From positions 496,001 through 560,000 of the forward strand of contig NZ_JAJVDH010000002.1 in NCBI RefSeq assembly GCF_022758145.1: a stretch of 64,000 nucleotides of DNA. The letters are read 5' to 3'. Below are positions 19,580 to 45,861 of this stretch, in pieces (the stretch's first letter is position 1; each line of letters begins with the position of its first letter). Made by a program: the position numbers and the translations under genes. The notes under the pieces are model-generated. The model worked only from the letters and a program-made list of their open reading frames with translations. It did no database searches and had not been told where the DNA came from. Source of the DNA: Pontibacter vulgaris. GTDB taxonomy: Bacteria > Bacteroidota > Bacteroidia > Cytophagales > Hymenobacteraceae.

Positions 19580-19580
19580 A

Positions 19581-20207
19581 ATGGAGCTTTCTGTATTCAA
19601 TATTAAAGGTGAAGATACAGGTAGAAAGGTAACACTTTCTGATGCTGTTTTTGGTGTTGAGCCAAACCAGCATGCAATGTATCTTGACGTGAAGCAGTAC
19701 CTGGCGAATCAGAGACAAGGTACACATAAGTCGAAAGAGCGAAACGAAGTAGCTGGTTCAACTAAGAAGATTAAAAAACAAAAGGGTACAGGTGGTGCTC
19801 GTGCAGGTAGCTTGAAATCTCCTGTGTTTGTTGGTGGTGGTAGAGTATTTGGTCCAAAACCAAGAAACTACAGCTTTAAACTTAACAAAAAGTCTAAGGC
19901 TGCTGCTCGTATCTCTGCACTTTCTCTTCTTGCTCGTGATAGCAAACTGTCTTTGATAGAGTCTTTCAATTTTGATGCTCCAAAGACTAAAGAATTCAAA
20001 TCAATTCTGAGTAATCTAAAAGTTGAAGGCAAGTCAATGTTCATTCTGTCAGATGTTAATCAGAATGTTGTATTGTCTGGTCGCAATTTGCCTAAAGTGA
20101 AGATTGCTACAGCTAATGATATCAATACTTATGATCTTTTAAACACAGATAAAGTTTATCTGGTTGAAGATTCAATTTCAATTATTGAAAACCTCTTAAG
20201 CGCATAA
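19581..20207 (+). CDS. rplD: 50S ribosomal protein L4
   Basis: Exit-tunnel protein; in E. coli it also represses the S10 operon. 208 aa, with the tunnel-loop sequence KKIKKQKGTGGARAGSLKSP. ATG 19581 gives MELSVFNIKGEDTG, one base after the rplC stop; an upstream in-frame start lies inside rplC. Its stop overlaps the rplW start. Confidence 0.97.
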   Translation: MELSVFNIKGEDTGRKVTLSDAVFGVEPNQHAMYLDVKQYLANQRQGTHKSKERNEVAGSTKKIKKQKGTGGARAGSLKSPVFVGGGRVFGPKPRNYSFKLNKKSKAAARISALSLLARDSKLSLIESFNFDAPKTKEFKSILSNLKVEGKSMFILSDVNQNVVLSGRNLPKVKIATANDINTYDLLNTDKVYLVEDSISIIENLLSA

Positions 20208-20497
20208 TGATGAACGTACTGAAAAGACCGCTTGTGACGGAAAAATTTACTGCCATGAATGAGGTTGGTAAATATGCTTTTGAGGTTGAAATCAAAGCTA
20301 ATAAAGTAGAGATCAAAAAAGCAGTTGAGAAACTTTATGGTGTTACAGTTAATAAAGTAGCTACTATGAAGACTATCGGTAAAGTAAAGAGCAAGTACAC
20401 TAAATCAGGTACTGTTTCTGGCCGTACTTCAGCTATCAAGAAAGCAATTGTAACCCTTAAAGAGGGTGAAGTAATAGACTTTTACAGCGGCATATAA
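20207..20497 (+). CDS. rplW: 50S ribosomal protein L23
   Basis: Protein at the tunnel exit; docking site for trigger factor and SRP. 96 aa beginning with the typical VLKRPLVTEKF. Two adjacent ATGs (20207 and 20210) are possible; the first overlaps the rplD stop by one base (TAATG-type junction), suggesting coupled translation. Confidence 0.97.
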   Translation: MMNVLKRPLVTEKFTAMNEVGKYAFEVEIKANKVEIKKAVEKLYGVTVNKVATMKTIGKVKSKYTKSGTVSGRTSAIKKAIVTLKEGEVIDFYSGI

Positions 20498-20507
20498 TTA
20501 AATAAAA

Positions 20508-21335
20508 ATGGCTTTAAAAAAGTTAAGACCAATAACACCAGGTCAAAGATTTAGAGTAGCGCCTGCATTCGATGAGATTACAGCTACTACTCCTGAGAAA
20601 TCTTTGTTGGCGCCGATTAAAAAATCTGGTGGACGCAATAACACAGGTAAAATGACTATGCGCTATATTGGCGGTGGTCATAAGAAGAAGTACAGAATGA
20701 TCGATTTCAAGCGTACAAAGCATGGCATTCCTGCCACGGTGAAGACGATAGAATACGATCCAAACAGAACAGCTCGTATTGCTTTGGTTTACTATGCAGA
20801 TGGTGAAAAAAGCTATATAATTGCTCCTTCTGGGCTTCAGGTTGGTACAGAAATCGTTTCAGGTCCTGGTATCGCACCAGAAGTTGGAAACTGCCTTCCT
20901 TTATCTGATATTCCTCTTGGTACAATAATTCACAACATTGAGTTGCAGCCAGGTAATGGCGCTACATTAGCAAGAAGTGCAGGTTCTTATGCACAGCTTG
21001 TAGCAAGAGAAGGTCGTTATGCAACAATTAAGCTTCCTTCAGGTGAATTAAGAATGGTATTAGTAACATGTTATGCTACTATAGGTACTGTTTCTAACTC
21101 TGATCATATGAATGTTAAGATCGGTAAAGCTGGTCGTAACAGATGGTTAGGTAAACGTCCTCGTGTAAGAGGTGTTGCAATGAACCCGGTTGATCACCCT
21201 ATGGGTGGTGGTGAAGGTAAATCTTCAGGAGGTCAGCCTCGTTCACGCAAAGGTTTATACTCAAAAGGTCTTAAGACTAGAAACAAGAATAAATATTCTG
21301 AAAAGCTTATAGTAAATAGAGGAAAGAAAAAATAA
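20508..21335 (+). CDS. rplB: 50S ribosomal protein L2
   Basis: Essential for subunit joining and close to the peptidyl-transferase centre. 275 aa, the usual length, with the late signature [18 protein letters not shown] carrying the conserved histidine. Its stop is immediately adjacent to the rpsS ATG. Confidence 0.99.
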
Positions 21336-21614
21336 ATGGCTAGATCATTAAAAAAAGGGCCTTATATTGACTATAGGCTTGAAAAGAAAGTTGACGTGAT
21401 GAATGAGGCTGGTAAGAAAACAGTTATCAAAACATGGTCACGCAGATCGATGATTTCTCCTGAATTCGTAGGTCACACATTTGCAGTACATAATGGTAAT
21501 AAGTTTATTCCTGTTTATGTTACTGAAAACATGGTAGGCCATAAATTAGGTGAATTTGCACCTACCAGAAACTTTAGAGGTCACATTGCTAAAAAAGATA
21601 AAGGCAAGCGTTAA
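21336..21614 (+). CDS. rpsS: 30S ribosomal protein S19
   Basis: 30S head protein contacting S13 and the A-site finger. 92 aa, beginning [19 protein letters not shown] and carrying the signature [19 protein letters not shown]. No gap separates it from rplB, and one base separates it from rplV. Confidence 0.98.
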
Positions 21615-21615
21615 G

Positions 21616-22008
21616 ATGGAAGCAGTAGCAAAACTAAATAATGTGCCTACTTCTCCTCGTAAAATGAGATTAGTAGCAGGCTTAGTACGCGGTAAGAGCG
21701 TAACTAAAGCGCTAGGATTGTTGAAGTTCGAAGCTAATTCTGGTGCTGCCAAAATTGAAAAGCTTTTATTATCTGCTTTAGCAAACTGGCAACAAAAAAA
21801 TGAAGATGCTCGCATCGAAGATGCAAACCTTTACATCAAAGAAATATTTGTTGATGAAGGTAAAATGTTAAAGCGTCTTCGTCCAGCTCCACAAGGACGT
21901 GGTCATAGAATCAGAAAGCGTTCAAATCATGTTACTGTTATCGTTGATAGCATGACGGATGAACAAATAGAGCAGCAATCAAAGAAATCTAAAAAAGCCA
22001 ACAAGTAA
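21616..22008 (+). CDS. rplV: 50S ribosomal protein L22
   Basis: Tunnel-lining protein. 130 aa with the tunnel hairpin region [20 protein letters not shown], where macrolide-resistance changes can arise; nothing unusual is seen. ATG 21616 gives [19 protein letters not shown]; the frame is open upstream but lies within rpsS. Confidence 0.97.
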
Positions 22009-22012
22009 GAAA

Positions 22013-22777
22013 ATGGGACAGAAAGTAAATCCAATCGGTTTTCGACTAGGAGTTATCAAAGGCTGGGATTCTAACTGGTATGGTGGAAAAGATTTCGCTG
22101 AAAAACTGGTAGAAGACGAGAAAATCAGAAAATATATTTTAGCTCGTATCCCTAAAGGCGGTATTTCTAAAATCATTATTGAAAGAACGCTTAAGCGCAT
22201 CACTATCACAATAAATACAGCTAGACCAGGTGTTGTTATTGGTAAAGGTGGACAAGAGGTAGATAAGATCAAGGAAGAACTAAAGAAGCTTACTAGCAAA
22301 GATGTTCAAATTAACATTTTTGAAATTAAGCGTCCAGAACTTGATGCTAAACTTGTAGGTGAGTCTATTGCTCAGCAGTTACAAGCTCGTATCTCTTTCC
22401 GTCGTGCCATGAAGCAAGCTATAGCTTCTGCTTTACGTGTTGGTGCTGAAGGCATCAAAGTTCAGGTTTCAGGTCGTTTAGGCGGTGCTGAAATGGCAAG
22501 AACTGAGCACTACAAAGAAGGTAGAACTCCTCTTCATACACTGCGTGCTGATATTGACTATGCACTGTCTGAAGCACAGACTGTATATGGCAAGCTTGGT
22601 ATTAAGGTATGGATCTTTAAAGGCGAAGTTTACGGCAAAAAAGATCTTTCACCTAATGCAGGTATGGAAGCTAAAGGTGGCCCTGGTGGCGCACCAAGTG
22701 GTGATAGACGTGGTGGTAACAGCCGTAAAAAAACGGATGGTGCTGCACCAAAGCGCAATAACAAGCGTCGTCAATAA
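22013..22777 (+). CDS. rpsC: 30S ribosomal protein S3
   Basis: mRNA-entry protein with RNA-unwinding contribution. 254 aa: a KH domain with [14 protein letters not shown] near residues 75-88 and the C-terminal S3 domain. The tail after about residue 212 is a low-complexity Gly/Lys/Arg-rich extension ([14 protein letters not shown]), longer than in E. coli. Confidence 0.98.
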
Positions 22778-22807
22778 TTGATTGTAAACATTATTATAAT
22801 TTAGAAA

Positions 22808-23230
22808 ATGTTACAGCCTAAAAGGACTAAATATAGAAAAATGCAAAAAGGCCGCGTGAAAGGTCTGGCTCATAGAGGCAGTACTATTTCATTTGGTTCA
22901 TTTGCAATAAAATCTCTAGAAGCTTCTTGGATTACAAGCCGTCAGATTGAATCGGCTCGTATTGCCATGACAAGAGCAATGAAACGTGAAGGTCAGGTTT
23001 GGATTCGTATTTTCCCTGACAAGCCTATTACCAAAAAGCCTGCAGAGGTTCGTATGGGTAAGGGTAAAGGTTCTCCAGAGTATTGGGTAGCCGTTGTTAA
23101 GCCTGGTACTATCATGTTTGAATCTGATGGTGTTACTTTAGAGGTAGCCAAAGAGTCTCTGCGCTTAGCTGCTCAGAAACTACCTGTAAAAACAAAATTT
23201 GTTGTACGTAGGGATTACGTTGAGAATTAA
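22808..23230 (+). CDS. rplP: 50S ribosomal protein L16
   Basis: Shapes the A-site region of the large subunit. 140 aa beginning [16 protein letters not shown], with the downstream signature [20 protein letters not shown] 30-base AT-rich spacer precedes it; rpmC follows after two bases. Confidence 0.98.
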
Positions 23231-23232
23231 AA

Positions 23233-23433
23233 ATGAAAAATTCAGAGATCAAAGCTTTGTCTTTAGAAGAATTGAAAGAGAAGCTAAACACTGAGAACTC
23301 CAACATGCAAAACCTTCGTTTTGCACATGCAATATCTCCGTTGGAGAACCCAATGAAAATCCGTGAGACCAAGAAGGCTATAGCTCGCCTAAACACAGAG
23401 ATTCGTCGTCGTGAAATTGAAGCTAACTCTTAA
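23233..23433 (+). CDS. rpmC: 50S ribosomal protein L29
   Basis: Small helical protein by the tunnel exit next to L23. 66 aa, two helices, with the conserved NLRFAHAISPLENPMKIRET. Part of the continuous rplC-rplQ cluster. Confidence 0.97.
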   Translation: MKNSEIKALSLEELKEKLNTENSNMQNLRFAHAISPLENPMKIRETKKAIARLNTEIRRREIEANS

Positions 23434-23448
23434 TACTAAGTAAAAATC

Positions 23449-23706
23449 ATGGAAGAGAGAAATCTTAGAAAAGAAAGAAGTGGTAAGGTTGTTAGCAACA
23501 AGATGGACAAGTCTATCACTGTACTAGTAGAAAGCAAAATGAAGCACCCAATGTATGGGAAATTTGTTAGCAAGTCTACTAAATTTATGGCTCACGACGA
23601 AAAGAATGAATGCAACATTGGTGACATTGTTCGCATCCAGGAGACACGTCCGCTAAGCAAGAATAAAAATTGGCGTTTAATTGAAATTGTAGAAAGGGCT
23701 AAGTAA
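23449..23706 (+). CDS. rpsQ: 30S ribosomal protein S17
   Basis: Primary 16S rRNA-binding protein with an OB fold. 85 aa, with [17 protein letters not shown] and the signature [18 protein letters not shown]. One base separates it from rplN. Confidence 0.97.
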
Positions 23707-23707
23707 G

Positions 23708-24076
23708 ATGATACAGCAAGAATCAAGATTAACTGTAGCTGATAATAGTGGTGCAAAGGAAGTTCTTTGCATCCGTGTACTGGGTGGTACTGGTAAAAAG
23801 TATGCCTCTATCGGTGATAGAATTGTAGTAACTGTAAAGTCTGCGCTTTCTTCAGGTAACGTTAAAAAAGGTACTGTTTCTAAAGCAGTGATTGTTAGAA
23901 CGAAAAAAGAGATTAGAAGAAAAGATGGATCTTACATTCGTTTTGACGACAATGCCGCTGTTCTATTGAATGCTAACAATGAACCACGTGGTACGCGTAT
24001 CTTTGGACCGGTTGCACGTGAACTTCGTGAAAAGCAATTCATGAAAATTGTTTCGTTAGCACCTGAAGTTCTTTAA
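23708..24076 (+). CDS. rplN: 50S ribosomal protein L14
   Basis: Intersubunit-bridge protein. 122 aa, the normal length, with [18 protein letters not shown] at the N-terminus. First gene of the classical spc section, here without a separate promoter. Confidence 0.98.
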
Positions 24077-24094
24077 TCATTAATTAGAATCGAA

Positions 24095-24418
24095 ATGAAT
24101 AAGAAAAAACTTCATGTTAAAACTGGCGATACAGTAAAAGTAATTGCTGGTGATGAACGTGGTAAAACAGGAAAAGTAATAGCTGTTAAAACTGATACAG
24201 GAAAAGTAGTTATCGAAGGATTAAACCTGGTAACTAAACATTCTAAGCCAAGTGCTAAAAATCCGCAAGGAGGTATTAGCAAGATTGAAGCCCCTGTACA
24301 TGCAAGTAACGTTATGTTAGTAGATCCAAAAACAGGCGCTACTACTAAAAGTGGTACTAGAAAAAACAGCGAAGGTAAATCAGAGCGTTATTCTAAAAAG
24401 ACAGGAGAAGTAATCTAA
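24095..24418 (+). CDS. rplX: 50S ribosomal protein L24
   Basis: Assembly initiator of the large subunit. 107 aa with the KOW motif [20 protein letters not shown] near residues 11-30. One base separates it from rplE. Confidence 0.97.
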
Positions 24419-24419
24419 G

Positions 24420-24974
24420 ATGGCTACTACAAGATTAAAAGATAAATATCAGAAAGAGGTAGTTCCTGCATTACAAGAGAAGTTCCAGTATAAGAACATC
24501 ATGCAGGTGCCTAAGATCACTAAGATCTCTATCAATAAAGGAATTGGTGCTGCAGTTGCTGATAAGAAATTAGTTGATATTGGTGTAGAAGAATTATCTA
24601 CTATAACTGGTCAGCGTGCAGTTGCAACTATAGCAAAGAAATCAGTTTCCAACTTTAAGCTTCGCGAAGGTATGCCGATTGGTGCTCGCGTAACGCTTAG
24701 AGGTGAGAAAATGTATGAATTCCTTGACCGTCTTTTGACTGTTGCTCTTCCACGTGTACGTGACTTCAGAGGTGTAAATGAAAAAGGTTTTGATGGCCGA
24801 GGTAATTATACTCTTGGTGTAAAAGAGCAGATCATTTTCCCAGAAATCAGTATTGATAAAATCAAAGCCATTAGTGGTATGGATATCACTTTTGTAACTA
24901 CAGCTAAAACTGACGAAGAAAGCTATGAGTTACTTAAAGCATTTGGTATGCCTTTCACTAATATAAAGAAATAA
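24420..24974 (+). CDS. rplE: 50S ribosomal protein L5
   Basis: 5S rRNA-binding protein and bridge to the 30S head. 184 aa with the signature [15 protein letters not shown] and the C-terminal [15 protein letters not shown]. rpsN follows after 4 bases. Confidence 0.98.
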
Positions 24975-24978
24975 TAAA

Positions 24979-25248
24979 ATGGCGAAAGAAGCAATCAAAG
25001 CTAGAGAGCTTAAAAGACAAAAGATGGTAGCTAAATATGCTGCCAAAAGAGCTGAACTGAAAGCAAAAGGAGATTACGAAGGATTAGATAAACTTCCTAA
25101 AAACGCTTCTCCTGTAAGATTACATAATCGTTGCAAGCTTTCAGGAAGACCACGTGGTTACATGAGAAAATTCGGAATTTCTCGTGTTGTGTTCAGAGAA
25201 TTAGCCGTTATGGGTAAGATTCCTGGTGTAACTAAGTCAAGCTGGTAA
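24979..25248 (+). CDS. rpsN: 30S ribosomal protein S14, zinc-free long form
   Basis: 30S head protein. 89 aa, the length of the long C-minus form; only one cysteine of the zinc-finger pattern is present ([16 protein letters not shown]), so it should not bind zinc. It is followed by a 91-base gap that holds a promoter-like box, the largest break inside the cluster. Confidence 0.97.
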
Positions 25249-25287
25249 TTTTTTCTTAATACATAAAGAAAATAAGCAAGATATTTG

Positions 25288-25295
25288 TATCTTTG
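25288..25295 (+). promoter_or_regulatory. Possible internal promoter before rpsH (-7 box)
   Basis: TATCTTTG fits TAnnTTTG exactly and lies 45 bases before the rpsH ATG in an AT-rich 91-base gap. No convincing TTG is seen at the right distance upstream, so this is a weaker call than the other promoters. Confidence 0.5.
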
Positions 25296-25339
25296 CGGCT
25301 CGCTTATTAAAAAGCATTCATTATTTAAGTGAATTCATA

Positions 25340-25738
25340 ATGAACTCAGATCCAATAGCAGATTATTTAACTAGAGTGCGTAACGCTATCAAAGCTAACC
25401 ACAGGATAGTTGAAGTACCATCTAGCAACATTAAGAAAGAAATAACTAAAGTACTTTACGATAAAGGGTACATCCAGAGTTACAAGTTTGATGACTCTTC
25501 TGTACAAGGTACTATTAAAATTGCTCTAAAGTATAACCCAAGCACTAAGCAGTCTGCTATTGTGAAACTTGAGCGTATTAGTAAGCCTGGGTTACGTAAA
25601 TACACTGGTGGAGATAACTTGCCTCGCGTTCTTAACGGTTTAGGAATTGCGATCTTGTCTACTTCAAAAGGTGTAATGACAGAAAAAGAAGCTAAATCAC
25701 TGAATATCGGTGGTGAAGTGTTGTGTTACGTTTACTAA
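25340..25738 (+). CDS. rpsH: 30S ribosomal protein S8
   Basis: Binds the central domain of 16S rRNA; in E. coli it is the spc-operon repressor. 132 aa with the C-terminal signature ILSTSKGVMTEKEAKSLNIG. It lies behind the possible internal promoter at 25.29 kb. Confidence 0.98.
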   Translation: MNSDPIADYLTRVRNAIKANHRIVEVPSSNIKKEITKVLYDKGYIQSYKFDDSSVQGTIKIALKYNPSTKQSAIVKLERISKPGLRKYTGGDNLPRVLNGLGIAILSTSKGVMTEKEAKSLNIGGEVLCYVY

Positions 25739-25752
25739 TAGGAGGATAGACA

Positions 25753-26307
25753 ATGTCACGTATAGGAAAATTGCCAATCAACCTTCCAAGCAACATCACT
25801 TTAACAGTAGGTGAAGATAACCTGGTAACGGTTGCCGGACCAAAAGGTACTCTTAGTACTCCTGTTAACAAGGATATTATTGTTAAGCAGGAAGATAACC
25901 AAATTGTGGTTGAGCGCCCTACTGAGCAAAAACGTCATAAAGCTATGCATGGCCTTTACAGATCATTGATCAATAACATGGTTATTGGTGTGAGTGAAGG
26001 TTATAAAGAGCAGTTAGAACTTGTAGGTGTTGGTTATAAAGCAACAGTTCAAGGTAGTGTTCTTGAGCTTGCACTTGGTTACTCTCACAACATTTTCATG
26101 ACTATGCCAACTGAGGTTACTGCTTCTGCTGTAACTGAAAAAGGTAAAGCTCCAGTTATAACTTTAGAGAGCAACGATAAGCAACTTTTAGGTCAGGTTG
26201 CAGCTAAAATCAGATCACTACGCAAAGTAGAACCTTACAAAGGTAAAGGTATCCGTTTTGTTGGTGAAGTAGTAAGAAGAAAAGCTGGTAAAACAGCATC
26301 TAAATAA
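25753..26307 (+). CDS. rplF: 50S ribosomal protein L6
   Basis: Protein near the sarcin-ricin loop. 184 aa with the C-terminal signature [19 protein letters not shown]. Unusually for this genome it has a full Shine-Dalgarno sequence, AGGAGG at 25740-25745, seven bases before the ATG. Confidence 0.98.
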
Positions 26308-26315
26308 TCATCATC

Positions 26316-26669
26316 ATGTCTGCTAATAAAGTACAAAGAAGACTTAGAATTAAGAGAAGCATCAGAAACAAGATTTCTGGTACTCCTGAAAGACCAAGAT
26401 TATCTGTATTCAGAAGCAATAAAGCTATCTATGCACAGATCATCGATGACACTACCGGCAAAACGCTGGTAGCTGCTTCTTCAGCTAAACTTGATGATGC
26501 TGCTGCTACAGCTAATATTGAAGTATCTAATCGTGTAGGTAAGGAAATTGCTGCTAAAGCTCTGGAAAAAGGAATCAATCAAGTAGTTTTTGATCGTTCT
26601 GGTTACCTCTACCATGGTAAAGTTAAATCATTGGCAGAAGGCGCACGCGAAGCTGGCCTTAAATTCTAA
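26316..26669 (+). CDS. rplR: 50S ribosomal protein L18
   Basis: 5S rRNA-binding protein. 117 aa with [20 protein letters not shown] near residues 23-42 and the C-terminal [20 protein letters not shown]. Six bases separate it from rpsE. Confidence 0.97.
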
Positions 26670-26674
26670 TAATT

Positions 26675-27193
26675 ATGTTGAAGAATAATATAAGAAGCGT
26701 AAAGGCTAGCGAGATTGAGCTCAAAGAGAAAGTTGTTGCTATCAATCGTGTTGCCAAAGTTGTTAAAGGTGGTAGAAGATTTAGTTTTGCTGCCATTGTA
26801 GTAGTAGGTGATGGTAATGGTGTTGTTGGTTATGGTTTAGGTAAAGCTAATGAAGTAACTGATGCCATTGCTAAAGGTATTGATGATGCAAAGAAGAACT
26901 TAGTTAAAGTTCCACTTTATCACCATACTGTTCCTCATTCTATGGAGGGCAAATATTCAGGTGGTTTCGTTTTAGTTAAACCAGCTGCACCTGGTACAGG
27001 TGTTATTGCCGGTGGTGCTATGCGTGCAGTATTAGAAAGTGCAGGTATTAAAGACGTACTTTGCAAATCAAAAGGTTCTTCAAACCCTCATAACGTGGTT
27101 AAAGCTACTTTTGATGCTCTTTCTAAAATGCGTGATCCTCTTGCAGTTGCTCAGCAACGTGGTGTAAATCTTCAGAAAGTTTTTAACGGTTAA
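26675..27193 (+). CDS. rpsE: 30S ribosomal protein S5
   Basis: Fidelity and mRNA-entry protein. 172 aa: a double-stranded RNA-binding-like N domain ([20 protein letters not shown]) and a C domain with [17 protein letters not shown]. Nothing unusual is seen. Confidence 0.98.
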
Positions 27194-27198
27194 TTGTC

Positions 27199-27378
27199 AT
27201 GGCTCAGGTAACGATAAGACAGATTAAAAGCATAATTGACAGACCTAAGAATCAGAAGCTTACAATTAAAGCACTTGGCTTAGGCAAAATCAATAAGTCA
27301 GTAACTGTTGAAAATACTCCACAGATTGCTGGAATGATCAATAAAGTTCATAATTTAGTAGAAGTAAAAGAGATTTAA
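27199..27378 (+). CDS. rpmD: 50S ribosomal protein L30
   Basis: 59-aa protein, short enough to be missed by length cutoffs. It begins MAQVTIRQIKSIIDRPKNQK and continues with the family pattern LGLGKINKSVTVENTPQIAG. It starts 5 bases after rpsE and ends one base before rplO, the classical position for rpmD. Confidence 0.96.
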   Translation: MAQVTIRQIKSIIDRPKNQKLTIKALGLGKINKSVTVENTPQIAGMINKVHNLVEVKEI

Positions 27379-27379
27379 T

Positions 27380-27826
27380 ATGTATCTAAGCGCATTACAA
27401 CCTGCAGAAGGAGCGATAAAGTCTCGTAAAAGAATAGGCCGTGGTACTGGTTCTGGTAGAGGGGGTACTTCTACAAGAGGACATAAGGGTGCTAAGTCTC
27501 GTTCTGGATATTCTCAAAAATCTGGTTTTGAAGGTGGTCAGATGCCTCTTCAAAGACGTGTTCCTAAATACGGCTTTAAGAATATCAATAGAGTAGAGTA
27601 TAAAGCTATTAACTTAGATGTTATACAATCTCTTGCGGACAACAGTACTGAAACTATCTTTAACTTTGATTTCTTCAAAGCTCATGGATTAGTTTCTAAA
27701 AATGATAAAATAAAAGTATTAGGTAGAGGCGAGTTGAATAAGGCAATTGAGATTCACGCTCACGCTTTCTCTCAAACAGCAACTACTTCTATCGAAAACG
27801 CAGGCGGCAAAACTGTAGCTCTTTAA
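27380..27826 (+). CDS. rplO: 50S ribosomal protein L15
   Basis: Late-assembly large-subunit protein. 148 aa; the N-terminal half is Gly/Arg/Ser-rich (RIGRGTGSGRGGTSTRGHKG), followed by a globular C-terminal part. secY follows after 4 bases. Confidence 0.97.
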   Translation: MYLSALQPAEGAIKSRKRIGRGTGSGRGGTSTRGHKGAKSRSGYSQKSGFEGGQMPLQRRVPKYGFKNINRVEYKAINLDVIQSLADNSTETIFNFDFFKAHGLVSKNDKIKVLGRGELNKAIEIHAHAFSQTATTSIENAGGKTVAL

Positions 27827-27830
27827 TTGT

Positions 27831-29147
27831 ATGAAGAAGTTTATAACAACTATTAAGAACATTTTCGCTATTGATGACCTTCGGGTAAGGATTTTAAATA
27901 CCCTTGGCTTCATAGCAATATTCAGATTAGGTTCTTATGTTGTTCTTCCAGGCATAGATCCAACTCAACTTCAAGCTAATACCGCTGGATTGTTTGGATT
28001 GTTAGATACTTTCTTAGGTGGTGCATTTAGTAATGCATCCATCTTTGCTTTAGGTATAATGCCTTATATTTCGGCTTCTATCGTTTTACAATTATTGACT
28101 ATTGCCGTTCCTTATTTTCAAAAGATGCAGAAGGAGGGTGAGTCTGGTAGAAAAAAAATCAACCAAATCACCCGAGTTCTTACTATCATTATAACACTTG
28201 CACAGGCTGTTGGGTTTGTTGCAACTATTAATAATGAAGCTATAGCTATAAACCATACTTTATTCACTATCACATCAATGATAGTGCTTACATCCGGTAC
28301 CATATTTTGTATGTGGCTAGGTGAAAAGATAACAGATAAAGGAATTGGTAATGGTATCTCTATGCTTATTATGATAGGTATAGTTTCCAGATTACCTGGC
28401 GCCTTAGTACAGGAGGCACTTTCAAAGCAATTAAATGGAGCACTAGTTTTCTTAGTAGAGATTGTTGTTTTGTTCTTTGTGGTTATGTCTGTTGTAATGC
28501 TTACTCAGGCTATTCGCAGAATACCTGTACAATATGCTAAGCAAGTTGGAGGAAGTTCTTTATATAGTGGTCAAAGACAGTTTATTCCTTTGAAAGTAAA
28601 TGCTGCTGGTGTAATGCCTATAATCTTTGCTCAATCATTAATGTTTTTACCATCGATGATTGCTTCAATTTGGGCTAACACAAATGAAACTGCTAACTAT
28701 ATAGGATCTACTTTCTCTGATTATACTTCATGGCAATATAATCTGGTGTTCGGTCTAATGATTCTAATCTTCACGTATTTTTATACTGCGATAAGCGTTA
28801 ACCCGAATCAGATTGCTGATGATTTAAAAAGAAGTGGAGGCTTTGTGCCTGGAGTTAAGCCTGGTAAAGCAACTTCGGAATATATTGATAATATTCTAAC
28901 TAAAATTACCCTTCCTGGCGCTATTTATTTAGCATTGGTAGCTATTGCTCCATCAATTGCTATGCTTTTAGGAGTAACAAGAGAATTTTCTCAATTCTTT
29001 GGCGGTACTTCTTTAATTATTATGGTTGGTGTAGTGTTAGATACATTACAACAAGTTGAAAGCTACTTATTAATGCGCCACTATGATGGTATGATGAAAT
29101 CTGGGAAACTACGTGGTAGAACAGAGAATATCGCCATGGTTTCTTAG
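27831..29147 (+). CDS. secY: Preprotein translocase subunit SecY
   Basis: Channel subunit of the SecYEG translocon in the inner membrane. 438 aa with about ten membrane segments. Visible family motifs include the first-helix region FRLGSYVVLPGIDP and the cytoplasmic-loop motif RRIPVQYAKQVGG. It is in the usual spc position behind rplO; map starts one base after its stop. Confidence 0.98.
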   Translation: MKKFITTIKNIFAIDDLRVRILNTLGFIAIFRLGSYVVLPGIDPTQLQANTAGLFGLLDTFLGGAFSNASIFALGIMPYISASIVLQLLTIAVPYFQKMQKEGESGRKKINQITRVLTIIITLAQAVGFVATINNEAIAINHTLFTITSMIVLTSGTIFCMWLGEKITDKGIGNGISMLIMIGIVSRLPGALVQEALSKQLNGALVFLVEIVVLFFVVMSVVMLTQAIRRIPVQYAKQVGGSSLYSGQRQFIPLKVNAAGVMPIIFAQSLMFLPSMIASIWANTNETANYIGSTFSDYTSWQYNLVFGLMILIFTYFYTAISVNPNQIADDLKRSGGFVPGVKPGKATSEYIDNILTKITLPGAIYLALVAIAPSIAMLLGVTREFSQFFGGTSLIIMVGVVLDTLQQVESYLLMRHYDGMMKSGKLRGRTENIAMVS

Positions 29148-29148
29148 C

Positions 29149-29919
29149 ATGATATATTACAAAACAGAAGAAGAAATTGAGTTAATTCGCCAGAGTGCTT
29201 TGATATTAAGCAAAGCACATGGCGAAATTGCTCTTCATATAAAAGAAGGTGTTCCAACTATAAAATTGGATAAAAGGGCTGAAGAATTTATTAAAGATCA
29301 TAAAGCGCAGCCTTCTTTTAAGAACTATAATGGGTTTCCTTATAGTTTATGTATTTCAGTAAACTCTACTGTAGTTCATGGCATGCCAGGTTCTTATGAA
29401 CTAAAAGATGGTGATGTTATTTCAGTAGATGGTGGAGTTCTTTTTAATGGTTATCATAGTGATTCTGCTTACACACATGCTGTAGGTAATGTTTCAGAAG
29501 AAGTTTCTAACCTTTTATCTGTTACTAAAGAGTCATTATACAAAGGAATAGAGCAAGCAATTGTTGGTTCAAGAATGGGGGACTTAGGTTATGCTATACA
29601 AAAGCATGCTGAGTCTCATGGCTATTCTGTAGTAAGGGAGCTTGTCGGCCATGGAATTGGTAAAAGCTTACATGAAGCGCCAGAAGTACCAAATTACGGC
29701 AAGCGCGGCCAAGGCATGAAATTATTGAATGGCCTTGTGCTTGCAATTGAACCAATGATAAATTTAGGTGTTCGTCATATAGTACAGGAAGATGACGGAT
29801 GGACTATCCGGACAAGGGATCATAAACCTTCAGCTCATTTTGAGCATACTGTTGTAGTAAGAAAGGATAAAGCCGAGATTTTAACAACTTTTGAATATAT
29901 AGAACAAGCTAAACAATAA
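29149..29919 (+). CDS. map: Methionine aminopeptidase, type I
   Basis: Removes initiator methionine from nascent proteins. 256 aa. The metal ligands are visible: two aspartates in DGGVLFNGYHSDSAY, a histidine in GHGIGKSLHEAP, and glutamates in IEPMI and HFEHTVVV. ATG 29149 gives MIYYKTEEEIELIRQS; an upstream in-frame ATG lies inside secY. Confidence 0.97.
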   Translation: MIYYKTEEEIELIRQSALILSKAHGEIALHIKEGVPTIKLDKRAEEFIKDHKAQPSFKNYNGFPYSLCISVNSTVVHGMPGSYELKDGDVISVDGGVLFNGYHSDSAYTHAVGNVSEEVSNLLSVTKESLYKGIEQAIVGSRMGDLGYAIQKHAESHGYSVVRELVGHGIGKSLHEAPEVPNYGKRGQGMKLLNGLVLAIEPMINLGVRHIVQEDDGWTIRTRDHKPSAHFEHTVVVRKDKAEILTTFEYIEQAKQ

Positions 29920-29922
29920 TAA

Positions 29923-30141
29923 ATGGCGAAGCAGTCCTCTATCGAACAAGACGGTACCATCATAGAAGCATTATCGAATGCTATGTTCCGGGTAGAGTTA
30001 GAAAATGGTCATCAGGTAGTTGCTCATATTTCTGGTAAAATGAGAATGAATTACATTAAGATTTTACCCGGAGATAGAGTTAAACTGGAAATGTCTCCTT
30101 ATGATCTTACCAAAGGCAGAATTGTTTATCGATATAAATAA
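29923..30141 (+). CDS. infA: Translation initiation factor IF-1
   Basis: Blocks the A site during initiation. 72 aa, exactly the usual size, with an OB-fold sequence ([20 protein letters not shown], then [20 protein letters not shown]). It lies three bases after map and five before rpmJ. Confidence 0.98.
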
Positions 30142-30146
30142 ATACA

Positions 30147-30263
30147 ATGAAAGTCAAAGCATCAGTAAAAAAGAGAAGTGCTGAATGTAAAGTTATCCGC
30201 CGTAAGGGGAAACTTTATGTAATCAACAAAAAAAATCCAAGATACAAACAAAGACAAGGATAA
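30147..30263 (+). CDS. rpmJ: 50S ribosomal protein L36, zinc-free form
   Basis: 38 aa, too short for usual ORF cutoffs. It begins [20 protein letters not shown] and ends NPRYKQRQG. Of the four zinc-finger positions of the C-plus form only one cysteine remains; the others are Ser, Asn and Tyr, so it should be zinc-independent like the S14 in this cluster. It sits in the conserved place between infA and rpsM. Confidence 0.96.
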
Positions 30264-30274
30264 TTTAAAGTAGT

Positions 30275-30652
30275 ATGGCAAGAATAGCAGGAGTAGATAT
30301 TCCGGATAACAAAAGAGGTGAGATTTCTTTGACCTACATCTTTGGTATTGGTCGTAGATTGTCTCAGACAATTCTTACTAAAGCCGGGGTGGATCTTGAC
30401 AAGAAAGTAAAAGACTGGACTGAAGACGAAGCCAGTGAGATCAGAAATATTATAGCAGCTGATCATAAAGTTGAAGGTGTTCTTAAGTCAGAAGTGCAGT
30501 TGCACATTAAGCGTCTTATGGATATCGGTAGCTATCGTGGATTGAGACACCGTAAAGGTTTGCCAGTTCGTGGTCAGCGTACTAAAAACAACACTCGTAC
30601 CAGAAAAGGTAAGCGTAAGACAGTTGCTAATAAGAAGAAAGCTTCTAAATAA
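30275..30652 (+). CDS. rpsM: 30S ribosomal protein S13
   Basis: 30S head protein that contacts P-site tRNA and L5. 125 aa, beginning [20 protein letters not shown], with the C-terminal [20 protein letters not shown] and a basic tail. First ribosomal gene of the alpha section. Confidence 0.98.
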
Positions 30653-30661
30653 TATTTGATC

Positions 30662-31054
30662 ATGGCTCAGAAAAGAAAAGATAAAGCAAAAAAGCGTGTT
30701 GTGGTTGTTGAATCAACTGGCCAAGTACACATCAAAGCTTCTTTCAATAATATCATTATCTCAGTAACCAATAACGCAGGACAAGTTATCTCTTGGGCTT
30801 CTGCTGGTAAAATGGGTTTCAAAGGTTCTAAAAAGAACACTCCTTACGCTGCACAAATGGCAGCTTCAGATTGCGCTAAGGTTGCTTATGACCTGGGTAT
30901 GCGTAAAGCTGAAGTTTTTGTTAAAGGTCCTGGTGCAGGTAGAGAGTCCGCCATCCGTACTGTACAAAATGCAGGTATCGAGGTAACAACTATCAAAGAT
31001 GTTACTCCACTACCTCACAACGGATGTCGTCCTCCAAAACGCAGAAGAGTTTAA
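30662..31054 (+). CDS. rpsK: 30S ribosomal protein S11
   Basis: Platform protein near the E site. 130 aa; a C-terminal signature is [21 protein letters not shown] 30662 gives [19 protein letters not shown]; a TTG two codons upstream is in frame but unlikely. Confidence 0.97.
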
Positions 31055-31078
31055 TCTATCTAATTCGATTTATTAATT

Positions 31079-31684
31079 ATGGCAAGATATACTGGTCCTA
31101 AAAGTAAAATCTCTAGAAAATTTAACGAAGAGATTTTCGGCCCAAGCAAAGCATTAAAGAAGAAGAGCTATCCTCCAGGGATGCACGGCCGTGGCCGTCG
31201 TAAGAAGCAATCTGAATATGCTATACAGTTAGCTGAAAAGCAAAAAGCAAAATATATCTATGGTATGCTTGAGAAGCAGTTTGCAAACCTGTTCGACAAA
31301 GCTCATAGAAAAGGTGGTATCACAGGTGAAAACCTTTTGATCCTTCTTGAATCAAGATTAGATAACACTGTTTACAGATTAGGTATTGCTCCAACAAGAA
31401 GAGCTGCTCGTCAGCTAGTACTTCATAAGCATATCACTGTTAATGGTGATATCGTTAACATCCCTTCATACAGCTTGAAAGTTGGTGATGCTATAGCTGT
31501 TAGAGAGAAATCAAAGTCGCTTGAGGCTATCACTACTAGCCTTTCTGTACGTAATGCACGTCAGTTCGGATGGTTAGAGTGGAATGCTTCTGAAATGGTT
31601 GGCCAGTTTGTGTCTGCACCTCAGCGTGACCAAATCCCTGAGAAAATTCAGGAGCAGCTAATCGTCGAGCTTTACTCTAAGTAA
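31079..31684 (+). CDS. rpsD: 30S ribosomal protein S4
   Basis: Primary 16S rRNA-binding protein; in E. coli it represses the alpha operon. 201 aa with an S4 RNA-binding domain ([20 protein letters not shown], then [19 protein letters not shown]). Nothing unusual is seen. Confidence 0.98.
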
Positions 31685-43015: not shown

Positions 43016-43957
43016 CTATAACTTCCTTTCCAGCATCTGCTGCAAAACGCCTTCCTTCAGCGCATAAGCCGACACCCGAATTTCCTGCAGGTTATACTTC
43101 TGCAGCACAAAATCTACAACTATACTTGCCAGCACGATCATATCCACACGCATTTCCAGCATACCGGGTATAGCTAAACGCTCTTCGTGGTTTTTGCGGA
43201 GCAGCTCTTCGTGTATGGCATAATAATCTGCAATGCTTATAGTTGATGCCGGTGGTATAGTTTGCTGGCGTGATATATCGCCTTTGCGGAGTGCATCAAT
43301 ATCACAAAGCGTATCGAAGGTGCCGGATGAGCCTACAAGTATAGTTGGTTTATAGGTGGCTACAGCTTCGGTGAGCGGTTGCAGCTTTTCGGCTAAATAA
43401 GTTTTTTCGGCGGCTATACTTTCGCTTGGTATCGGGTCTGCGGTAAAGAACTGGTCCATCAGGCGCTGGGCTCCTACCTCGAAGCTGCGTTTCCAGAAGA
43501 TCTCCTGGTTGTTGCAAACTATAAACTCCACGCTGCCGCCACCAATGTCCATGATCAGGGCCGTCTGCTCGTCCAGCACACCAGCGAAGCGCACACCATA
43601 GTAGATTAGTTCTGCTTCGCGGGCACCGTCTATTACTTCTACTTCTATGTTGGTCTGCTTATAGATGTCCTTTACAAAATCTTCGCCGTTGGCAGCGTTA
43701 CGCACCATGCTGGTAGCCATGGCCCGAACCGTTTCAGCACCATGCTCATCAATCACCTTCCGGAAATCTTTCAGAGTTTTAAGGGCACGCTCGTAGGCTT
43801 CGGGAGCTATGTTGCCGTTGCTGATGCCGCCCTGCCCCAACCTCACCGGTACTTTGGTTTTATACAGGTCGCGCAACTGCCCCTGCTCATTCACTTCCGT
43901 TACCAGCAAGTGAAATGTATTCGTACCCATATCTATTAGTGCAAGGCGGTTGGTCAT
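43016..43957 (-). CDS. Ppx/GppA family phosphatase
   Basis: Hydrolyses polyphosphate or pppGpp; the two activities share this fold. 313 aa, the short form without the C-terminal HD-like domains of E. coli Ppx. ASKHA-fold motifs are ALIDMGTNTFHLLV at the N-terminus and LIMDIGGGSVEFIV around residues 145-158, with ILVGSSGTFDTL later. It faces the repeat-rich stretch. The EVE-HNH gene lies upstream on the same strand, 34 bases away. The substrate (polyP or pppGpp) is not decidable here. Confidence 0.93.
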   Translation of the reverse strand: MTNRLALIDMGTNTFHLLVTEVNEQGQLRDLYKTKVPVRLGQGGISNGNIAPEAYERALKTLKDFRKVIDEHGAETVRAMATSMVRNAANGEDFVKDIYKQTNIEVEVIDGAREAELIYYGVRFAGVLDEQTALIMDIGGGSVEFIVCNNQEIFWKRSFEVGAQRLMDQFFTADPIPSESIAAEKTYLAEKLQPLTEAVATYKPTILVGSSGTFDTLCDIDALRKGDISRQQTIPPASTISIADYYAIHEELLRKNHEERLAIPGMLEMRVDMIVLASIVVDFVLQKYNLQEIRVSAYALKEGVLQQMLERKL

Positions 43958-43991
43958 TGTTTGGAATGTTAATTGATAATTGTTGTAAGAA

Positions 43992-44804
43992 TTAATGCAG
44001 AGAGTTTATACTGATGAATTCTTTTAGCTCCTCTATAGTATATGGCTCCTTTCTTTTATGCAACATTGCATGACAGTTGGGGCAAACAGGTCGTAAGTCC
44101 TTAATAGGGTCTACTTGGTACTGTCCTCCAATTGAAGAAATTTGATTTAAATGATGAACATGAATGAAGTTTTGACCTAATTCACCAAATCTTTCTTCAA
44201 AATTAAAATCACAAACTTGGCAGGATAGACCATAGTGGTCTATGCAAGTTTGTCTAGCAAAAGGATTTCTTTCATATTTTGTAACCAAAACCTGGTTTGG
44301 AGTTCCTTCAGTAAAAACTTGATGGTTATCTGATTCAGAGTTTATAAAAGGATTTGTTCTTATGTTTTGTGTCGTAAGAAAATCAAACCATAGCCCTTCT
44401 AACTCTTTAGTAAACTCTTTTTGAATTTCTATTCCTGAAGCTTGCGGAGTCCAGTTGATTCTAGATAAATCTCCTTGCTTCAATAAGTCAAGACTTAATA
44501 TTGGCTCTTGCTCTACATTAAGCAATACATCAAACTCAATATCAACCATGTGGATCGTTTTATTCTCTCCACTCCAGTGTTTGGCTAAGAATACATGGCT
44601 TGAAACATATCCGGAGCCAACAATCCCTTTTGGTTCTTCTCCTAAGCGGAAAAGAAAAGCACGATCTCCAGGAGATATTTTTTTATGACTTGCTACGCTC
44701 CAGTCTTCTGTTGCCTTTCCTTTAATTTTAATCTTACTTATAGTTTGTTCGAGATCTTTCCATTCCCACTTTTTAGGATTCCATACAAAAAGAAATGTCT
44801 TCAT
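43992..44804 (-). CDS. Predicted EVE-HNH modification-dependent endonuclease
   Basis: 270 aa. The N-terminal 130 residues resemble EVE/PUA-like base-reading domains (FVWNPKKWEW, then ISPGDRAFLFRLGEEPKGIV and GSGYVSS). The C-terminal part is an HNH nuclease: C195-C198 (CQVC), HVHHLN at residues 215-220, and C241/C244 with H245 and H249 (CPNCHAMLH), the expected zinc and catalytic pattern. This architecture is known from type IV, modification-dependent restriction enzymes such as VcaM4I, which cut DNA with modified cytosine. The gene is more AT-rich than its neighbours and has ordinary housekeeping genes on both sides, suggesting recent acquisition. The modified base recognised is unknown. Confidence 0.8.
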   Translation of the reverse strand: MKTFLFVWNPKKWEWKDLEQTISKIKIKGKATEDWSVASHKKISPGDRAFLFRLGEEPKGIVGSGYVSSHVFLAKHWSGENKTIHMVDIEFDVLLNVEQEPILSLDLLKQGDLSRINWTPQASGIEIQKEFTKELEGLWFDFLTTQNIRTNPFINSESDNHQVFTEGTPNQVLVTKYERNPFARQTCIDHYGLSCQVCDFNFEERFGELGQNFIHVHHLNQISSIGGQYQVDPIKDLRPVCPNCHAMLHKRKEPYTIEELKEFISINSLH

Positions 44805-44859
44805 ATAATGATCGCTTTAAGTTCTAGATATAGAAAGATACCTATTTAAACTATAACTT

Positions 44860-45753
44860 CTACCTCCCAACCGAAGTAAACCTGAAGAAAGTACCCAACG
44901 GCAGTTTCCTGTCACCGCCATCCAGCAGATATAGTTCGCCGAGCTCTTCGTTTTTCACCATGTCGCCAAACGTGCCGCGCATCAGGTTATCGAGCACCAT
45001 CGCCGAGAAGCCCATCGAGTACAGGTTTATCAGCAGGAAATAATCGGTGCCATCCAGCATTTCGCGGCAGAGCTTTATCATTTCATTCAGTTCGTCTTCC
45101 AGTTGCCATTTTTCGCCGTTCGGGCCACGGCCATAGCTTGGTGGGTCCAGGATGATTCCGTTATACTTGTTGCCACGTTTCACTTCGCGGCGGGCATACT
45201 TCATGGCGTCTTCCACTATCCAGCGCACGTTATCCAGGTTGCTGGCTTCCATGTTGTCGCGGGCCCAGAAGTTAACCTGCTTTATAGAGTCCAGGTGGGT
45301 TACATCGGCACCGGCAGCTTTGGCAGCTAAGGTAGCAGCACCGGTGTAGGCAAACATGTTCAGTACTTTTGGCTGTGGCGTTTTTAGCTTGCGGGTGGTA
45401 TCATAAATAAACTTCCAGTTAGCGTCCTGCTCCGGAAACAAACCCACATGCTTAAACGACGACAAACCCAAACGGAAACGCAGCTTCAGGTCGTTATACT
45501 TATAGTTGATGAACCATTGCTCCGGCATTCCTTTCTTCAGTTTCCACTGGCCTTTTTCCTGGCTGCCTTTGTCGCGGGTAAACACGGCATTGGCCATACG
45601 CTGCCACTCCTGCTCAGGCAGGTGCTTGTCCCAGATGGCCTGTGGCTCGGGGCGTGCTACATAATACTGGCCAAAACGCTCCAGTTTCTCAAAGTTGCCA
45701 CTATCCACTAATTCGTAATCGGCCCAGTTTTCTGTTGTAAGAAAGGAATACAT
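44860..45753 (-). CDS. Class I SAM-dependent methyltransferase, RlmI/RlmK-like
   Basis: 297 aa. The Rossmann methyltransferase half shows motif I-like NMFAYTGAATLAAKAAGADV and the acidic residue VTHLDS, and the active-site loop ILDPPSYGRGPNGEKW, as in the rRNA methyltransferases RlmI and RlmK-C. The N-terminal part (ELVDSGNFEKLERFGQYYVA) matches that group too, but the usual PUA domain is absent. An rRNA target is likely but not shown. It is transcribed divergently from dapF with a 108-base gap. Confidence 0.85.
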   Translation of the reverse strand: MYSFLTTENWADYELVDSGNFEKLERFGQYYVARPEPQAIWDKHLPEQEWQRMANAVFTRDKGSQEKGQWKLKKGMPEQWFINYKYNDLKLRFRLGLSSFKHVGLFPEQDANWKFIYDTTRKLKTPQPKVLNMFAYTGAATLAAKAAGADVTHLDSIKQVNFWARDNMEASNLDNVRWIVEDAMKYARREVKRGNKYNGIILDPPSYGRGPNGEKWQLEDELNEMIKLCREMLDGTDYFLLINLYSMGFSAMVLDNLMRGTFGDMVKNEELGELYLLDGGDRKLPLGTFFRFTSVGR

Positions 45754-45861
45754 ATCTTTGTCGTTTATTTCAGGCGCAGCGCCTATAAGGTGGTAAAATT
45801 ACGCATTATATGCCACACCTTAAAAAGTGCACGAACCTGCAGTTTTAATTGTTTCAGATAC

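What the first reader, a model, noticed from the sequence alone, without database searches (positions are those of the whole stretch)
43992..44804. Single-gene EVE-HNH restriction candidate of foreign composition
An N-terminal EVE-like base-reading domain is joined to an HNH nuclease with CxxC...HxHH...CxxCHxxxH. The gene is visibly AT-richer than ppx and the methyltransferase gene beside it, and no methyltransferase partner belonging to a classical restriction system is adjacent. That fits a stand-alone type IV, anti-phage or anti-modified-DNA enzyme newly inserted in a housekeeping locus.
Basis: partly seen in the sequence, partly recalled or inferred. Interest (0 to 1): 0.58.

Follow-up and report, generated by a model that had tools for sequence, protein, structure and literature searches.

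The report
Stand-alone EVE-HNH restriction gene, cassette-borne kin
A Pontibacter genome carries a one-gene enzyme that probably cuts DNA bearing modified bases, such as disguised phage DNA; it sits in a chromosomal slot where nearly every related species keeps a different gene, and its closest relatives travel between bacteria as integron-type gene cassettes.

Summary
Observation confirmed. ORF 43992-44804 (-), 270 aa, has an EVE domain (25.8 bits, cut-off 23) and an HNH nuclease domain (30.4, cut-off 21.4). The modelled N-terminus has the EVE/YTH fold; Foldseek's top hit is the EVE-HNH enzyme VcaM4I. Motif residues are invariant in 31 homologues. Best reading: a single-chain modification-dependent (type IV) restriction enzyme, a new member of a known kind. 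Substrate and activity are untested.

The interval between an RNA-methyltransferase-like gene and ppx measures 80-31,176 bp in 49 of 50 congeners, with mostly unrelated co-oriented genes; the neighbouring interval is 100-112 bp in 48 of 50. (2) The nearest relatives are integron-type cassettes (gene plus ~124-bp attC-like repeat, complementary ends), near-identical across bacterial families; one Tenacibaculum array holds three. The recombinase beside that array lacks the additional domain that defines integron integrases. The window copy itself has no attC.

The parts
43992..44804 (-). EVE-HNH gene, 270 aa, predicted single-chain modification-dependent restriction endonuclease
   Evidence: ORF; Pfam EVE + HNH above gathering cut-offs; AlphaFold/Foldseek/VIA
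44370..44804 (-). N-terminal EVE (PUA-superfamily) domain, about residues 1-145; invariant W8 N9 P10, W35, D47 R48, W118, S123 G124 mark the likely base pocket (the pocket assignment is inference)
   Evidence: Pfam match residues 3-110; VIA range 1-144 against EVE structures; invariants in 31 homologues
44052..44222 (-). HNH (beta-beta-alpha-Me) nuclease core with two CxxC zinc half-sites and the HxHH / CHxxxH catalytic residues
   Evidence: Pfam match residues 195-251; invariant in 31 of 31 homologues; EcoKMcrA 6ghc matched over residues 173-268, E 8.6e-4
43958..44859 (.). Variable slot between the methyltransferase stop codon and the ppx start codon; EVE-HNH is its only gene here
   Evidence: interval of 80-31,176 bp with mostly unrelated cargo in 49 congeners
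43016..43957 (-). ppx (Ppx/GppA phosphatase), conserved flank of the slot, downstream in transcription order
   Evidence: PF02541 211.7 bits; present in 50 of 50 genus genomes
44860..45753 (-). RlmI/RlmKL-like SAM methyltransferase (RNA-methylase-like), conserved flank, upstream in transcription order; not a DNA-methylase partner
   Evidence: PF10672, NCBIfam rRNA-methylase matches below cut-off; present in 50 of 50 genus genomes
45754..45861 (.). Control interval between the methyltransferase and dapF, nearly constant in length across the genus
   Evidence: 100-112 bp in 48 of 50 genomes, 159 and 277 bp in the other two

Best explanation
The gene makes a stand-alone modification-dependent (type IV) restriction endonuclease. 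Most likely mechanism: the EVE domain binds DNA carrying a modified base (5mC or 5hmC by analogy with VcaM4I; another cytosine modification or 6mA is possible), flips that base into an aromatic pocket, and this relieves inhibition of the C-terminal Zn-stabilised HNH domain, which as a dimer makes a double-strand break nearby. No methyltransferase partner is needed because the host's own DNA lacks the modification. The gene lies as a co-oriented cargo gene in an operon-like slot between an RNA-methyltransferase-like gene and ppx, probably read through from the upstream gene. The lineage arrived by horizontal transfer, and its closest relatives move as integron-type gene cassettes. Shown: domain architecture, fold of the EVE part, conservation, purifying selection in relatives, variability of the slot, cassette status of relatives. 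Inferred: substrate, cleavage, autoinhibition, anti-phage role, read-through expression, and the route into this slot.
For: Pfam EVE and HNH above cut-offs. Foldseek over the whole model ranks VcaM4I (6yex) first, E 1.9e-5, followed by EVE proteins. VIA-align Z 9.7-12.4 for EVE structures including VcaM4I. 44 invariant columns among 31 homologues include aromatic residues of the EVE part and the Cys/His of the HNH motif. dN/dS 0.04-0.13 in pairs of seven close relatives. PADLOC's best match is a type IV REase model over the HNH part, E 5.4e-5, weak. No DNA methylase adjacent. No C5 DNA methylase (PF00145, E<=1e-10) in the window genome or in the other full-length Pontibacter carrier, against 23 of 50 genus genomes with one. 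VcaM4I's 5mC/5hmC flipping, linker-helix autoinhibition and phage restriction are published (PMC7897488; abstract and sections 18, 19, 21, 22, 25 read); EVE-HNH as predicted type IV enzymes: PMC7641849 (passages).
Against: Ten of 20 genomes carrying EVE-HNH relatives do encode a C5 methylase, so recognition of just any 5mC would be self-damaging; the sensor must be selective or read something else. Sequence searches do not reach VcaM4I itself; the link is structural and at about 14% identity. VcaM4I's active site (Ser-H224, N241, D250, D254) differs from the HH/CHxxxH arrangement here. The inter-domain linker 156-173 is poorly predicted, so the autoinhibition geometry was not tested. The HNH half gave no row of its own in the VIA list. 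PADLOC has no model that fits the whole protein.
Confidence: 0.78

Rival explanations
1. EVE-HNH reads 6mA rather than a modified cytosine, i.e. it works like a YTH-type reader fused to HNH.
For: YTH domains (6mA/m6A readers) score Z 8.4-9.4 against the EVE part, within about 1 of VcaM4I's 9.7; C5 methylases coexist with EVE-HNH in 10 of 20 carrier genomes; related HNH proteins carry another front domain that may be a winged helix, and wH-HNH enzymes are published 6mA-dependent nucleases (PMC11037411, passages).
Against: Proper EVE proteins rank above YTH in both structure searches; the one characterised enzyme of this architecture that I read about prefers 5hmC/5mC (PMC7897488).
Confidence: 0.2
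2. A homing or other selfish HNH gene, or a domestic gene in RNA metabolism, rather than restriction.
For: Many HNH genes are homing endonucleases (general knowledge); [quoted passage not shown]
Against: It does not interrupt a gene; the front domain is a base reader; relatives sit in cassette arrays beside other accessory genes; a distant relative of the HNH part in Pontibacter G020 lies beside two C5 methylases, as in a type II R-M system (G020:C1:2740996; 2741728 and 2742756).
Confidence: 0.06
3. The gene's low GC and patchy presence reflect vertical inheritance with loss at a fast-evolving locus, not transfer.
For: The slot's content is AT-rich in many congeners (23 of 49 intervals at GC 0.37 or below), so low GC partly belongs to the slot.
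Against: Full-length copies in 2 of 50 genomes, which fall in different parts of the tree, the window copy joining cassette-borne proteins of other families (95/81 support) and the G027 copy a Cytophagaceae protein (100/99); near-identical copies are shared between families in relatives (98.8% DNA over 965 bp, Aequorivita and Algoriphagus).
Confidence: 0.05

Closest known systems
VcaM4I (EVE-HNH modification-dependent endonuclease, PDB 6yex; PMC7897488)
   Same: N-terminal EVE, C-terminal HNH, one chain of about 270-310 aa, no methylase partner; top whole-model Foldseek hit
   Different: About 14% identity over the EVE part; not found by sequence search; VcaM4I's active site is Ser-H224/N241/D250/D254, whereas this protein has HH217-218 with a CHxxxH helix and two CxxC half-sites
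EcoKMcrA (HNH 5mC-dependent enzyme, PDB 6ghc)
   Same: HNH core with CxxC...HH...CPNCHxxLH; matched by sequence over residues 173-268, E 8.6e-4
   Different: The match covers the HNH part only; nothing of the EVE part was matched
[quoted passage not shown]
   Same: Interchangeable sensor fused to HNH; Pontibacter and Hymenobacter relatives share this HNH with another front domain (L003, L004, L012, L163)
   Different: The window protein has only EVE; in the three-domain relatives the order is front domain-EVE-HNH, not PUA-wH-HNH
Integron gene cassettes (attC sites, IntI)
   Same: 19 of 32 tested relative loci show cassette-type ends; the attC helix is supported by covariation
   Different: The window copy lacks attC and paired ends; the recombinase next to the Tenacibaculum array lacks the IntI additional domain

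Membership tests
EVE-HNH modification-dependent (type IV) restriction endonuclease, VcaM4I type | N-terminal EVE/PUA-superfamily domain | tested here: met
   Pfam 25.8 bits over cut-off 23; VIA Z 12.4-9.7 to EVE structures
EVE-HNH modification-dependent (type IV) restriction endonuclease, VcaM4I type | C-terminal HNH domain with intact catalytic residues | tested here: met
   Pfam 30.4 bits over 21.4; motif Cys/His residues invariant in 31 of 31 homologues; by sequence only, the HNH fold was not matched on its own
EVE-HNH modification-dependent (type IV) restriction endonuclease, VcaM4I type | Single chain without a cognate DNA methylase or NTPase partner | tested here: met
   Neighbours are ppx and an rRNA-methylase-like gene; no PF00145 methylase anywhere in the genome at E<=1e-10
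EVE-HNH modification-dependent (type IV) restriction endonuclease, VcaM4I type | Base-flipping pocket equivalent to P24/W82/Y130 of VcaM4I | tested here: inconclusive
   Conserved aromatics W8, W35, W118 fit a pocket, but VcaM4I could not be aligned residue by residue
EVE-HNH modification-dependent (type IV) restriction endonuclease, VcaM4I type | Cleaves modified DNA and restricts modified phage | not testable with these tools
   needs a bench assay
Integron gene cassette (the window copy) | attC site downstream of the gene | tested here: not met
   no attC match in the window or in its whole genome (G000 0 matches); 34 bp to the ppx start
Integron gene cassette (the window copy) | Start GTTN6 complementary to an N6AAC at the end | tested here: not met
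   best 6 of 9, reached by 137 of 300 shuffles
Integron gene cassette (EVE-HNH relatives, e.g. L131, L132, L133, L203) | attC hairpin with complementary cassette ends | tested here: met
   9 of 9 complementarity, 0 of 300 shuffles; in the Tenacibaculum array 5.33 of 6 free positions match against 2.21 when shuffled, maximum 2.93 of 1000, n=46; 61 compensatory cells, 0 of 500 shuffles
Integron (Tenacibaculum array, G422) | Integrase with the IntI additional domain | tested here: not met
   the adjacent recombinase L218:1177-2364 lacks the ~40-residue insert that the Desulfamplus IntI L210 has; TIGR02249 195 bits under cut-off 265; no other match in that genome passed the cut-off (1 of 20 genomes did, G430)
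PADLOC anti-phage system protein | Match over the whole protein to a defence model | tested here: not met
   only partial weak matches, best mREase_IV over residues 174-267, E 5.4e-5

The most novel reading that the evidence does not exclude
EVE-HNH restriction genes are stock cargo of a little-recognised integron platform in Bacteroidota, run by an IntI-like tyrosine recombinase without the additional domain that defines integron integrases. The window copy is an escaped cassette that lost its attC and settled in a chromosomal operon slot (RNA-methyltransferase-like gene to ppx) which samples promoterless single genes, several of them nucleases or defence genes, by exchange between conserved flanks.
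Probability: 0.3. Interest if true: 0.68.

Novelty: new member of a known kind. Interest (0 to 1): 0.45.

Why it matters
As an enzyme this is one more EVE-HNH type IV candidate, from a branch that sequence search does not connect to the characterised example VcaM4I, so it would widen what is known of EVE specificity. The larger point is how such genes move. Single-chain type IV enzymes need no partner, which suits them to one-gene carriers, and here the same family is found as integron-type cassettes shared almost unchanged between families of Bacteroidota. Integron cassettes as anti-phage libraries have been reported for Vibrio and for mobile integrons (2025 papers cited in PMC12444791; I read only its passages). 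If Bacteroidota keep large arrays with a recombinase that current integron criteria pass over, a sizeable store of defence genes is being missed.

Tried and rejected
Window copy as an integron cassette: rejected. Target-site duplication or terminal repeats round the gene: none found. Terminator after the gene: none; the promoter scan there found 4 sites against 3.0 by chance. Recurrence in viruses: no relative among 42 pattern matches in viral contigs; 7 phage records match the C-terminal part only, none over 80% of the query; plasmids, 202 records with one covering 98% at 25% identity, a Lactococcus plasmid HNH gene. The BFVD search gave one strong match (E 2.0e-11, 27% identity, 152 columns) to a predicted podovirus protein, not followed up. 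5mC self-incompatibility as proof of specificity: rejected, since 10 of 20 carriers encode a C5 methylase. Slot cargo as generally drawn from the cassette pool: of 69 slot ORFs only EVE-HNH itself (circular, as the arrays were found through it) and the MNT/HepT pair of G176 hit 259 kb of array loci; of 60 window ORFs used as control only EVE-HNH hit. So the link is not shown beyond EVE-HNH. Winged-helix identity of the extra N-terminal domain: Pfam silent; the model's order H-H-E-H-H-E-E-H fits, but the structure search was filled by the EVE part; left as inference. First extraction of slot intervals read minus-strand loci in the wrong orientation; corrected.

Rows dropped before counts: of 49 single-contig intervals, two over 3.5 kb (G032, G028) were not read for ORFs and three had no ORF of >=80 aa, leaving 44; G034's flanks lie on different contigs. 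Pfam was run on 20 of the 69 slot ORFs, chosen by hand, so no enrichment of defence genes is claimed. The cassette label in the tree was set before the end-complementarity test; L142, L144, L163, L192 and L198 passed later though labelled otherwise, and L136, L140, L150 and L151 were labelled cassette but did not pass the 60-nt test.

Full report
What is there. The ORF at 43992-44804 on the minus strand (270 aa) carries an EVE domain and an HNH domain, each above Pfam's curated cut-off. It lies between ppx (43016-43957) and a SAM methyltransferase (44860-45753), all on one strand, with gaps of 34 and 55 bp. The methyltransferase matches PF10672 and, below cut-off, mainly 23S rRNA methyltransferase models, so it is not a restriction partner. 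GC is 0.353, the lowest of 46 ORFs of 150 aa or more in the window (mean 0.432, sd 0.043); the next lowest are mostly ribosomal-operon genes. The window's genus is most likely Pontibacter: the congener G027 has a contig of the same length and match as a named record, uncultured Pontibacter; G297, of the same family, likewise matches Hymenobacter busanensis.

Fold. An AlphaFold model from 31 aligned proteins has pLDDT 82 and pTM 0.77, with a low-confidence linker at 156-173. Foldseek ranks VcaM4I (6yex), an EVE-HNH enzyme, first over the whole chain (E 1.9e-5); the superposition of the whole is loose (rmsd 15.6), as expected if the two domains are placed differently. VIA-align gives Z 12.4 (2ar1), 11.1 (2eve), 10.4 (THYN1 5j3e) and 9.7 (6yex) over residues 1-144 or so, and 8.4-9.4 for YTH domains. 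Sequence profiles do not reach VcaM4I; EcoKMcrA is matched, over the HNH part.

Conservation. Among 31 EVE-HNH proteins, W8 N9 P10 W13, W35, D47 R48, W118, S123 G124 in the EVE part and C195, C198, H215, H217, H218, D236, C241, N243, C244, H245, H249 in the HNH part are invariant. Seven close relatives give pairwise dN/dS of 0.04-0.13. The proteins are kept under function, nuclease included. VcaM4I flips 5mC/5hmC into a pocket of P24/W82/Y130 and its linker helix silences the HNH dimer (PMC7897488); I infer the same logic here but could not map the pocket residue by residue.

Self and non-self. The window genome and the other Pontibacter carrier of a full-length copy (G027) encode no C5 DNA methylase, while 23 of 50 genus genomes do. 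That fits a 5mC/5hmC-reading enzyme. But 10 of 20 genomes carrying relatives do encode one, so the pattern is not a rule and the base read remains open.

The slot. Both flanking genes are present in 50 of 50 genus genomes. In 49 they lie on one contig with the same order and strand, and the interval runs from 80 to 31,176 bp (median 1009). On the other side of the methyltransferase the interval to dapF is 100-112 bp in 48 of 50 genomes and 159 and 277 bp in the other two. In 44 readable intervals, 69 ORFs of 80 aa or more fall into 35 families, 25 of them single. 67 of 69 lie on the strand of the flanking genes; the two exceptions are in G421, and the longer one overlaps an SDR-like ORF on the other strand and is probably spurious. 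Even the closest relative by methyltransferase protein identity (G033, 100%) has an unrelated 179-aa gene there. Of 20 slot ORFs scanned, those above Pfam cut-off include SduA_C (Shedu; G011), Abi_C (G012), DUF559 (G031), RusA (G413) and a Polbeta/HepT pair (G176), besides FkbM, OMP, TonB-plug and erythromycin-esterase families. The edges are abrupt: nothing is shared after the methyltransferase stop codon, and often only a ~25-bp leader before ppx. No flanking direct repeats were found. Flanking genes are 87-94% identical in DNA between the window genome and G033, which would allow exchange by homologous recombination; that is inference.

Relatives travel as cassettes. Scanning GTDB genomes with the EVE domain gave 79 loci. 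By my reading encode full EVE plus HNH, 38 encode EVE alone (30 of these in records titled Mucilaginibacter), and 10 are cut or broken. Copies in Aequorivita and Algoriphagus, of different families, share 98.8% DNA identity over 965 bp that end with the gene and a ~124-bp repeat. The repeat is an attC-like site: GTRTAT...ATAYAC arms, 95.7% of cells paired, 61 compensatory cells against 17.9 in shuffles (0 of 500). The cassette begins GTTACCTGC and the gene ends in GCAGGTAAC, its stop codon overlapping that motif; such complementarity of own ends is found in 19 of 32 tested loci at 8 or 9 of 9 with at most 4 of 300 shuffles as good (weakest L142, L163, L192, L198). In Tenacibaculum sp. AHE14PA a 73-kb stretch holds 51 attC profile matches (a few sites split in two), all on one strand, and 46 testable cassettes whose own ends match at 5.33 of 6 free positions against 2.21 for shuffled ends (maximum 2.93 of 1000); three of these cassettes are EVE-HNH. 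In the second genome read, G073, the same test was not decisive (6 cassettes, 2.17 against 1.63, maximum 2.67), probably because sites were missed or poorly bounded.

The recombinase. Just upstream of the Tenacibaculum array, with one 220-aa ORF between it and the first attC, lies a 395-aa tyrosine recombinase that matches TIGR02249 in two pieces at 195 bits, under the cut-off of 265, and NF040815 (site-specific tyrosine recombinase/integron integrase) at 207 under 220. In an alignment it and six similar proteins from Bacteroidota genomes lack the ~40-residue insert that a canonical IntI from Desulfamplus shows; I take this insert to be the additional domain, which has been used to select integron integrases (PMC2426708, passages). 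A similar recombinase lies about 3 kb before the first profile-detected attC in G073. Whether it moves these cassettes is untested. IntegronFinder 2.0 reports for Bacteroidetes proper one complete integron, in Salinibacter, where an earlier study had found only In0 (PMC9024848, passages). I found no report of EVE-HNH cassettes or of such Flavobacteria arrays in searches of the held library (listings read); most subscription papers are not in it.

The window copy. In a tree of 31 proteins it is sister, with 95/81 support, to a group of nine of which eight were labelled cassette-borne; the ninth, from Desulfamplus, also passes the end test (8 of 9, 4 of 300). The other Pontibacter copy (G027) lies elsewhere in the tree, so the genus probably acquired the family twice. 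The window copy has no attC, no paired ends, and its genome has no attC match, while 29 of 50 congeners have at least one, mostly single. So it is a resident gene with cassette-borne kin, not a cassette.

Modules. The same HNH part occurs behind several front domains. Two of these fronts also occur with EVE put between: N1-HNH (L003, L004, L015, L018, L023) and N1-EVE-HNH (L012/L159, L163, L169 cut by its contig end); N2-HNH (L032) and N2-EVE-HNH (L201) by my reading of the sequences. N1 is predicted as H-H-E-H-H-E-E-H, which would fit a winged helix; this is not established. If right, N1-EVE-HNH would read two marks in the order wH-EVE-HNH, unlike the published PUA-wH-HNH order (PMC11037411, passages).

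Verdict. Known kind of enzyme, real, well conserved, most likely a type IV restriction endonuclease. The gene itself is of modest novelty; the slot and the cassette-borne kin raise the interest.

Noticed in passing
L241-L244 (Tenacibaculum sp. AHE14PA, 1.285-1.358 Mb) and L218:1177-2364: Large integron-like array (46 testable cassettes) beside a recombinase without the IntI additional domain; some cassettes occur in near-duplicate.
   Followed up: partly
L012/L159 (Hymenobacter busanensis), L163, L169: Three-domain proteins with an extra N-terminal domain (possibly winged helix) before EVE-HNH, i.e. perhaps two modification sensors on one nuclease.
   Followed up: partly
L201 and L032: A second, different N-terminal domain occurs both as N2-HNH and N2-EVE-HNH, suggesting that EVE is an insertable module.
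   Followed up: no
L155-L209 (38 loci, 30 titled Mucilaginibacter): Stand-alone EVE proteins of about 149 aa, close to the EVE part of these nucleases, recur across Mucilaginibacter; their role and genomic context are unknown.
   Followed up: no
L130 (Pontibacter G004, C6:204000-217000), 3.6-12.8 kb: Run of AT-rich single genes on one strand with three attC model matches, including an N1-HNH nuclease gene: an integron-like stretch in a Pontibacter genome.
   Followed up: partly
G020:C1:2740996-2743892: A distant relative of the HNH part lies next to two C5 DNA methylases, looking like a type II restriction-modification locus.
   Followed up: no
L120-L121 (G028) and L114 (G032): The methyltransferase-ppx interval is expanded to 31 kb and 9 kb in two congeners; contents not read.
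   Followed up: no
window 18962-31684: Ribosomal protein operon with secY and map; its genes are among the next most AT-rich ORFs of the window after EVE-HNH.
   Followed up: yes
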